Positions 43,002-43,765 of a stretch of 64,000 nt of DNA are shown here, piece after piece. The stretch is from an uncultured Clostridium sp. (GTDB taxonomy: Bacteria; Bacillota; Clostridia; TANB77; CAG-508): assembly GCA_946565805.1 (NCBI GenBank), contig CAMNWO010000012.1, positions 1 to 64,000 of the forward strand, written 5' to 3'. Positions within the stretch are counted from its first letter, which is position 1. Every line of letters starts with the position of its first letter. Position numbers and translations under genes: made by a program. The notes below the pieces were generated by a model, which had not been told where the DNA came from, searched no databases, and saw only the letters and a program-made list of their open reading frames with translations.

Positions 43002-43030
43002 TTGACTTATGTAAATTTATATGCTATAAT
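43002..43030 (+). promoter_or_regulatory. Sigma-A-type promoter upstream of tandem structured RNA
   Basis: TTGACT - 17 bp - TATAAT. Confidence 0.8.
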
Positions 43031-43037
43031 AGCTACT

Positions 43038-43364
43038 GTAATTGCTCGAGAGCAATTGTAATTGTCACTGTCATCAGTACACATTTAGTGCTGAATGGCT
43101 AAACCTTTTTTTCAATTTCATAAGGAGGAGATCTCATGAAAAGAGCAGGACCTAGAAAAAAATTATCTAATTTAAATTTGATATTTTCATGATCCGGCAG
43201 CTGCGCAGCGAGCGCAACCTATGAGGTGAAACTATGATAAAAATAAGAAAAGGTAGTTTCCCGGTGGGCTTTGTCCCTCTGGAGTGGTTTCACTAGAAAG
43301 TGAAAAAAGATGCGATTTGTGTGAGTCTAAACATCTTTTATACCACTAAAACAGACTCAAGTGT
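43038..43364 (+). ncRNA. Structured RNA of unassigned family, copy 1
   Basis: Nearly identical to copy 2; hairpins (TTGCTCGAGAGCAA; CAGTAC/GTGCTG; TCATGAAAA/TTTTCATGA; GAAACTA/TAGTTTC; TTTCACT/AGTGAAA) and possible pseudoknot AAAAGATG/CATCTTTT with TGAGTCT/AGACTCA. Confidence 0.75.
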
Positions 43365-43384
43365 AATTTTTTAATAGTTAATAT

Positions 43385-43710
43385 GTAATTGCTCGAGAGC
43401 AATTGCAACAGTCACTGTCATCAGTACACGTTTAGTGCTGAATGGCTAAACCTTTTTTCAATTTCATAAGGAGGAGATCTCATGAAAAGAGCAGGACCTA
43501 GAAAAAAATTATCTAATTTAAATTTGATATTTTCATGATCCGGCAGCTGCGCAGCGAGCGCAACCTATGAGGTGAAACTATGATAAAAATAAGAAAAGGT
43601 AGTTTCCCGGTGGGCTTTGTCCCTCTGGAGTGGTTTCACTAGAAAGTGAAAAAAGATGCGATTTGTGTGAGTCTAAACATCTTTTATACCACTAAAACAG
43701 ACTCAAGTGT
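43385..43710 (+). ncRNA. Structured RNA of unassigned family, copy 2
   Basis: Same sequence as copy 1 apart from a few substitutions near the 5' end and one T deleted in a T-run; no obvious own promoter. Confidence 0.75.
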
Positions 43711-43721
43711 GATTTTTAAAA

Positions 43722-43765
43722 AGAGAGCATCCGTACTAAAGTACACTAATGCTCTCTTTGCTTTT
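43722..43765 (+). terminator. Intrinsic terminator after tandem RNA
   Basis: AGAGAGCAT...ATGCTCTCT followed by TTTGCTTTT. Confidence 0.75.

What the first reader, a model, noticed from the sequence alone, without database searches (positions are those of the whole stretch)
43002..43765. Tandem duplicated ~327-nt structured RNA with strong promoter and terminator
Two nearly identical units (43038-43364, 43385-43710) on the + strand between rsmE and rubrerythrin. A consensus promoter (TTGACT-17-TATAAT) places the start at the 5' hairpin GTAATTGCTCGAGAGCAATTG. Multiple stems are evident, including a perfect 9-bp long-range stem TCATGAAAA/TTTTCATGA and a likely H-type pseudoknot (AAAAGATG..TGAGTCT..CATCTTTT..AGACTCA). 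The GC-richer core GATCCGGCAGCTGCGCAGCGAGCGCAACC / CCCGGTGGGCTTTGTCCCTCTGGAG stands out in this AT-rich genome. Only copy 1 has a promoter, suggesting one transcript cut into two RNAs. I cannot assign a family from memory; raiA RNA is one candidate to test.
Basis: partly seen in the sequence, partly recalled or inferred. Interest (0 to 1): 0.78.

Follow-up and report, generated by a model that had tools for sequence, protein, structure and literature searches.

The report
Structured RNA encoding two tiny peptides
A stretch of gut-bacterial DNA, copied twice side by side, makes an RNA of no catalogued family that folds into a conserved shape and also carries the code for two very short conserved peptides; relatives occur patchily in other uncultured gut Clostridia, and what they do is unknown.

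Summary
The tandem is real: two units 98% identical (43036-43364, 43384-43710), one consensus promoter (43002-43030), a terminator-like hairpin (43720-43759). It matches no Rfam family, raiA included. Homologues confirm structure: a covarying 5' hairpin, and a 3' domain with covarying helix and H-type pseudoknot. The quoted 9-bp 'stem' TCATGAAAA/TTTTCATGA is ORF1's start and stop. Both ORFs recur elsewhere: ORF2 at all 24 loci found (20 genomes, at least four genera of one family), with synonymous codon changes and, in most groups, a conserved end ([FY]x[SAV]GF[VATL], usually followed directly by stop); ORF1 (R-x-(x)-P near its start) at nearly all. The pseudoknot domain is dispensable (absent from eight loci). 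Tandem amplification recurs (three units behind one promoter, L182). The promoter TTGAYTTATGTAAA-N9-TAHAHT is a shared class in the family (64 hits, 1 control hit), mostly before small ORFan genes. Best reading: an accessory, strongly promoted bicistronic micropeptide RNA whose structure serves translation or stability of the sORFs. Function is inferred; expression untested.

The parts
43002..43030 (+). promoter TTGACT-17-TATAAT with TG; contains the family-wide signature TTGACTTATGTAAA
43040..43057 (+). copy 1: 5' hairpin P1 (AATTGC..GCAATT)
   Evidence: same position in homologues; pair counts not made because the alignment is out of register there
43072..43097 (+). copy 1: hairpin P2, strongly covarying
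   Evidence: 7 of 8 pairs with double changes
43122..43130 (+). copy 1: Shine-Dalgarno of ORF1 (AAGGAGGAG)
43136..43192 (+). copy 1: ORF1, MKRAGPRKKLSNLNLIFS*
   Evidence: start, SD and R-x-(x)-P motif conserved
43193..43219 (+). copy 1: GC-rich segment directly after the ORF1 stop; GC-rich sequence lies here in most relatives
43223..43233 (+). copy 1: Shine-Dalgarno region of ORF2 (GAGGTGAAACT)
43234..43296 (+). copy 1: ORF2, MIKIRKGSFPVGFVPLEWFH*
   Evidence: synonymous substitutions, conserved stops
43284..43359 (+). copy 1: 3' domain: Pa GTGGT/ACCAC, Pb hairpin, Pc AAAAGATG/CATCTTTT, pseudoknot TGAGTCT/AGACTCA
43387..43404 (+). copy 2: hairpin P1
43419..43444 (+). copy 2: hairpin P2
43468..43476 (+). 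copy 2: Shine-Dalgarno of ORF1
43482..43538 (+). copy 2: ORF1, identical peptide
43539..43565 (+). copy 2: GC-rich segment after ORF1
43569..43579 (+). copy 2: Shine-Dalgarno region of ORF2
43580..43642 (+). copy 2: ORF2, identical peptide
43630..43705 (+). copy 2: 3' pseudoknot domain, identical
43720..43759 (+). terminator-like hairpin, probably shared with the convergent rubrerythrin gene
   Evidence: stem kept with altered bases in L003

Best explanation
It is a standalone bicistronic micropeptide RNA, amplified here in tandem. One strong promoter serves both units. Each unit is an mRNA-like structured RNA with two short ORFs, each with its own Shine-Dalgarno site: ORF1 (N-terminal R-x-(x)-P motif, variable remainder, a GC-rich segment right after its stop) and ORF2 (conserved [FY]P[SV]GF[VA], in this clade extended by P..W). 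Shown by sequence comparison: the family, conserved helices and pseudoknot, and coding constraint on the sORFs. Inferred: both sORFs are translated; ORF1 is a leader peptide whose passing or pausing ribosome sets access to ORF2; ORF2 translation is the constant output; in the clade with the 3' pseudoknot domain that domain, which ORF2 overlaps in group A, is opened or protected by the translating ribosome and sets RNA stability or 3' end formation. Whether the effector is the ORF2 peptide, the act of translating it, or the RNA remains open; since the structured domains come and go while ORF2 stays, the peptide or its translation is favoured.
For: ORF2 with SD in all 16 distinct units that have the 3' domain and at all 24 loci. 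Its FPxGF codons in groups A and C differ pairwise 109 synonymous to 83 nonsynonymous; about 22% synonymous expected for random changes. Over 15 distinct six-codon words Gly uses GGT/GGA/GGC/GGG and Pro all four codons. Group C puts TAA or TAG at the same codon in 7 of 7. ORF1 keeps SD, ATG and R-x-(x)-P with synonymous changes while its length runs from 7 to 42 aa. Independent test: a promoter-only search recovered eight further two-sORF loci; an ORF2-like ending with SD occurs in 5e-5 of random 600-nt sequences. RNA constraint. The conserved pseudoknot domain is absent from those eight loci; ORF1 is absent from L079 and L004. Tandem amplification also in L182 (269-nt period) and partly in L076. 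An ORF2 DNA pattern in 342 genomes of the order hits only known members.
Against: No expression or translation data. Peptides of 10-20 aa are too short for database support. Part of the codon conservation could be RNA constraint (the Trp codon lies in helix Pa). Group B ORF2 lacks FPxGF and keeps only VPGKWFS; L076 keeps only GFV*. ORF1 is missing in two loci, so it cannot be essential to the mechanism, and in L182 the first ORF1 lacks the R-x-(x)-P motif. The idea that ORF2's SD is sequestered by its own FP codons was tested and is not above chance. Synonymous counts are pairwise and not corrected for phylogeny.
Confidence: 0.5

Rival explanations
1. It is primarily a trans-acting structured noncoding RNA (or dual-function sRNA); the sORFs mainly recruit ribosomes or tune decay.
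For: Covarying 5' hairpin and 3' pseudoknot domain; long extra GC-rich sequence in group C; no consistently linked downstream gene.
Against: The pseudoknot domain is absent from eight loci that keep both sORFs; codon-level conservation of ORF2.
Confidence: 0.22
2. The sORFs are ribosome-arrest leader peptides: ORF1's R-A-G-P / R-G-P / R-A-P resembles RAPP-like arrest motifs, so the RNA is a translation sensor that holds or releases ribosomes in response to an unknown signal.
For: RAGP is the SecM motif and RAPP-like motifs are depleted in bacterial proteomes (PMC12992588), yet an R-x-(x)-P motif is conserved in ORF1 here.
Against: The motif sits within the first several codons, without the upstream nascent chain that RAPP-like arrest needs according to PMC12992588; most members read RGPT or RAPT, not RAPP; no regulated gene follows.
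Confidence: 0.15
3. ORF2 is a signalling or antimicrobial peptide precursor whose conserved C-terminal hexapeptide is the mature product, and the tandem raises its dosage.
For: Variable basic N-terminus with conserved C-terminus ending at the stop in groups C and D and three single loci; recurrent tandem amplification; promoter shared with small ORFan genes.
Against: No signal sequence, transporter or receptor gene evident beside it; group A continues past the motif and group B lacks it.
Confidence: 0.1
4. It is a divergent member of a known RNA class such as raiA or tmRNA.
For: Size, pseudoknot and embedded ORF are superficially similar.
Against: No Rfam match; the genome has its own tmRNA.
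Confidence: 0.03

Closest known systems
Dual-function (sORF-bearing) bacterial sRNAs such as SgrS, RNAIII, Spot 42 (from own knowledge)
   Same: Strongly promoted, structured, standalone RNA with a short translated ORF
   Different: Two conserved sORFs per unit, unrelated sequence, tandem amplification, a promoter class shared with small ORFan genes; no target known
RAPP-like arrest peptides (SecM, ApcA, ApdA, ApdP; PMC12992588, PMC10951233)
   Same: Short conserved Arg-(Ala/Gly)-(Gly)-Pro motif
   Different: Motif near the N-terminus of a 7-42 aa peptide, no upstream nascent chain, no downstream regulated gene
tmRNA
   Same: Structured RNA with pseudoknot and a short reading frame
   Different: No tRNA-like domain found, two ORFs each with its own SD; the genome has a separate tmRNA
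Large structured RNAs raiA, OLE, ROOL, GOLLD, HEARO
   Same: Structured intergenic RNA of several hundred nt in Firmicutes
   Different: No covariance-model match; coding sORFs are the most constant part

Membership tests
raiA RNA (Rfam) | match to the Rfam covariance model | tested here: not met
OLE / ROOL / GOLLD / HEARO / 6S (Rfam) | match to the Rfam covariance models | tested here: not met
   no such match, even at E<=10 on the window region
tmRNA | Rfam / ARAGORN match with tRNA-like domain | tested here: not met
   none in the window; real tmRNA on another contig
dual-function sRNA / sORF RNA | structured RNA under selection | tested here: met
dual-function sRNA / sORF RNA | conserved short ORF with ribosome-binding site | tested here: met
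dual-function sRNA / sORF RNA | transcribed and translated; RNA has a regulatory role of its own, such as pairing with targets | not testable with these tools
   no expression data for these uncultured species
RAPP-like arrest peptide | RAPP/RGPP/RAGP near the C-terminus with an upstream nascent chain | tested here: not met
   RAGP only in group A and within the first several codons; definition from PMC12992588
RAPP-like arrest peptide | ribosome stalling | not testable with these tools
   needs toeprinting or profiling

The most novel reading that the evidence does not exclude
A previously undescribed class of RNA-embedded two-peptide systems: a leader peptide with an arrest-like R-x-(x)-P motif gates a second micropeptide, inside an RNA that can grow a pseudoknot domain and amplify in tandem, controlled by a promoter class shared with small ORFan genes across a family of gut Clostridia.
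Probability: 0.2. Interest if true: 0.85.

Novelty: new variant of a known kind. Interest (0 to 1): 0.62.

Why it matters
It is a case where RNA structure and micropeptide coding are both under selection in one small standalone locus, outside Rfam and too small for gene callers. Since several structural domains come and go while the sORFs stay, it makes testable whether some orphan structured RNAs in gut bacteria are really peptide genes. The shared promoter signature also gives a handle on a set of small unannotated genes in a large, uncultured gut lineage.

Tried and rejected
Rfam membership including raiA. The 9-bp 'stem' as RNA structure: it is ORF1 start/stop. The alifold long-range pairing of the first alignment: replaced by the three-helix 3' domain once the sister genus was found. 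Phage or plasmid origin: only chance-level matches in phage and plasmid records, no hit of the 3' core or of the ORF2 pattern in viral contigs, and the 8 promoter hits in viral contigs show none of this anatomy. tmRNA replacement: genome has its own. SD sequestration by the FP codons: not above shuffles. Weak hits of model R1 inspected in G172, G134 and G129: noise. Short BLAST matches inspected in three genomes (L009, L011, L014): chance.

Full report
OBSERVATION. The two units were confirmed at 43036-43364 and 43384-43710 with 98% identity. Both ORFs, the GC-rich core and the 3' domain are identical between copies; the differences lie in the 5' part and at the very 3' end. The promoter TTGACT-17-TATAAT (43002-43030) matches 11 of 12 consensus bases with TG before the -10, and no + strand promoter precedes copy 2. 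A long hairpin followed by a T-rich stretch (43720-43759) lies between copy 2 and the convergent rubrerythrin gene.

NOT A KNOWN RNA. No Rfam family matches at gathering thresholds, or sensibly at E<=10 for the region; five homologous loci give none either at E<=0.5, apart from a neighbouring tRNA. The genome has an ordinary tmRNA elsewhere.

HOMOLOGUES. DNA search and two covariance models built here found relatives in the same genus (G019, G215, G031; 4 of 214 held genomes counting the window's own) and in a sister genus (10 of 27 genomes). A genome-collection scan gave 15 records, all uncultured Clostridia MAGs, two of them not seen before (L076, L079); L079 is the locus found again as L163 in another genus of the family. 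A class-wide sample of 392 genomes and an order sample found none outside this family. Distribution is patchy; in several relatives that lack the RNA, rubrerythrin and rsmE are separated by only about 100-250 nt. Each clade keeps its own insertion site: rubrerythrin/rsmE, lysS/tRNA, yebC/spoIIIAA, plsC/ribosomal-S1-like, rRNA methyltransferase/asnS (gene names other than those are my reading of the translations).

STRUCTURE. The 3' domain consists of Pa (GTGGT/ACCAC), Pb (hairpin), Pc (AAGATG/CATCTT) and a pseudoknot GAG[T/C]C/G[A/G]CTC. Across 16 distinct sequences 98.3% of cells pair, 8 of 18 pairs show double changes, and no shuffle reaches this covariation score. The alignment was fitted to a model of this structure, which favours it. 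The pseudoknot stem is kept in all, at loop lengths that vary, with U-A to C-G exchange; in L079 and L087 the script reported an alternative pairing, but the GAGTCT/GACTC pairing is visible in their sequences. Hairpin P2 in the 5' part covaries at 7 of 8 pairs. Pa never varies and says nothing either way.

TWO SHORT ORFS. ORF1 (43136-43192) and ORF2 (43234-43296) have good Shine-Dalgarno sites. ORF2 is found with SD in all 16 distinct units. In groups A and C its FPxGF codons differ by 109 synonymous versus 83 nonsynonymous pairwise changes, against about 22% synonymous expected; over 15 distinct words Gly uses all four codons and Pro all four. In group C a stop (TAA or TAG) stands at the same codon in 7 of 7. 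ORF1 keeps SD, start and R-x-(x)-P while its length varies from 7 to 42 aa. So the finding's TCATGAAAA/TTTTCATGA is ORF1's start and stop, not a helix.

GROUPS AND COUNT. Group A: window (two units), L003, L008, L004, L079. Group B: L057, L060, L062, L071. Group C: L058, L059, L061, L063, L064, L070, L076. Group D: L127, L130, L176, L177, L179. Single: L173, L182, L156. That is 24 loci in 20 genomes; four genomes hold both a B and a D locus.

INDEPENDENT TEST. The promoter core TTGACTTATGTAAA occurs once in the window's genome, in front of this RNA. Searching the family for the promoter pattern alone gave 64 hits in 53 of 393 genomes and 14 of 39 genera against 1 for the reversed control. Eight loci with this promoter carry two-sORF elements that the covariance models had not found: five group D loci (ORF1 M[TI]RGPTAT.., ORF2 MKTKM[RW][MI]F[PH]SGFV*), L173 (MRQTRASPI*, MSKVSVRYSSGFT*), L182 (MTILRMFPSGFL*) and L156 in a further genus (MRDGPSTSKKSKKS*, MTNLNVKRFTAGFT*). 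An ORF2-like ending with SD occurs in 5e-5 of random 600-nt sequences. These eight lack the conserved 3' pseudoknot domain (by reading their sequences; the last unit of L182 has a faint resemblance), so the sORFs, not that domain, are the constant part. An ORF2 DNA pattern searched in 342 genomes of the order hits only these elements.

TANDEM. L182 has three ORF2 copies with a 269-nt period behind one promoter, with ORF1-like MINIRYNIRASPN* between; L076 has an internal duplication. The window's tandem is therefore one case of a recurrent event.

MECHANISM. Shown: conserved promoter class, helices, coding constraint. Inferred: translation of both sORFs; ORF1 as leader acting on ORF2; ORF2 translation or peptide as output; the overlapping 3' domain as a translation-sensitive stability or end-formation element. 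ORF1's motif recalls RAPP-like arrest motifs, which are depleted in proteomes (PMC12992588), but its N-terminal place argues against classical arrest. Sequestration of ORF2's SD by its own codons was tested and is not above chance.

LIMITS. No expression data; peptides too short for database homology; MAG-based genomes; pairwise substitution counts not corrected for phylogeny; large human-microbiome RNA surveys (e.g. PMC8040213) may contain it under a number, which could not be checked since supplements were not available.

Noticed in passing
family-wide; e.g. L136-L163 and L164-L184 (promoter at about position 1501 or 201 of the locus, on either strand): Promoter signature TTGAYTTATGTAAA-N9-TAHAHT precedes many single small ORFan genes (also a thymidylate synthase and MYG1-like genes) in 14 of 39 genera; 64 hits versus 1 control hit. 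Looks like a regulon or an operator overlapping the promoter.
   Followed up: partly
L157, L158, L159 (and perhaps L140): Under that promoter, a family of 34-39 aa peptides sharing INPFNSxxNFxYW; no Pfam match for the one tested.
   Followed up: no
L080, L088, L083, L085 downstream of the 3' domain: Group C RNAs carry a further GC-rich, apparently structured stretch beyond the pseudoknot.
   Followed up: no
L178, promoter at base 202 of the reverse strand: A second, degenerate copy: promoter and 5' hairpins only, then a terminator-like hairpin, in the neighbourhood of the intact group B unit of G421.
   Followed up: no
L131:1584-2090: A 168-aa orphan protein (DSNCYSYALG motif) behind the same promoter in G303; no Pfam match.
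   Followed up: no
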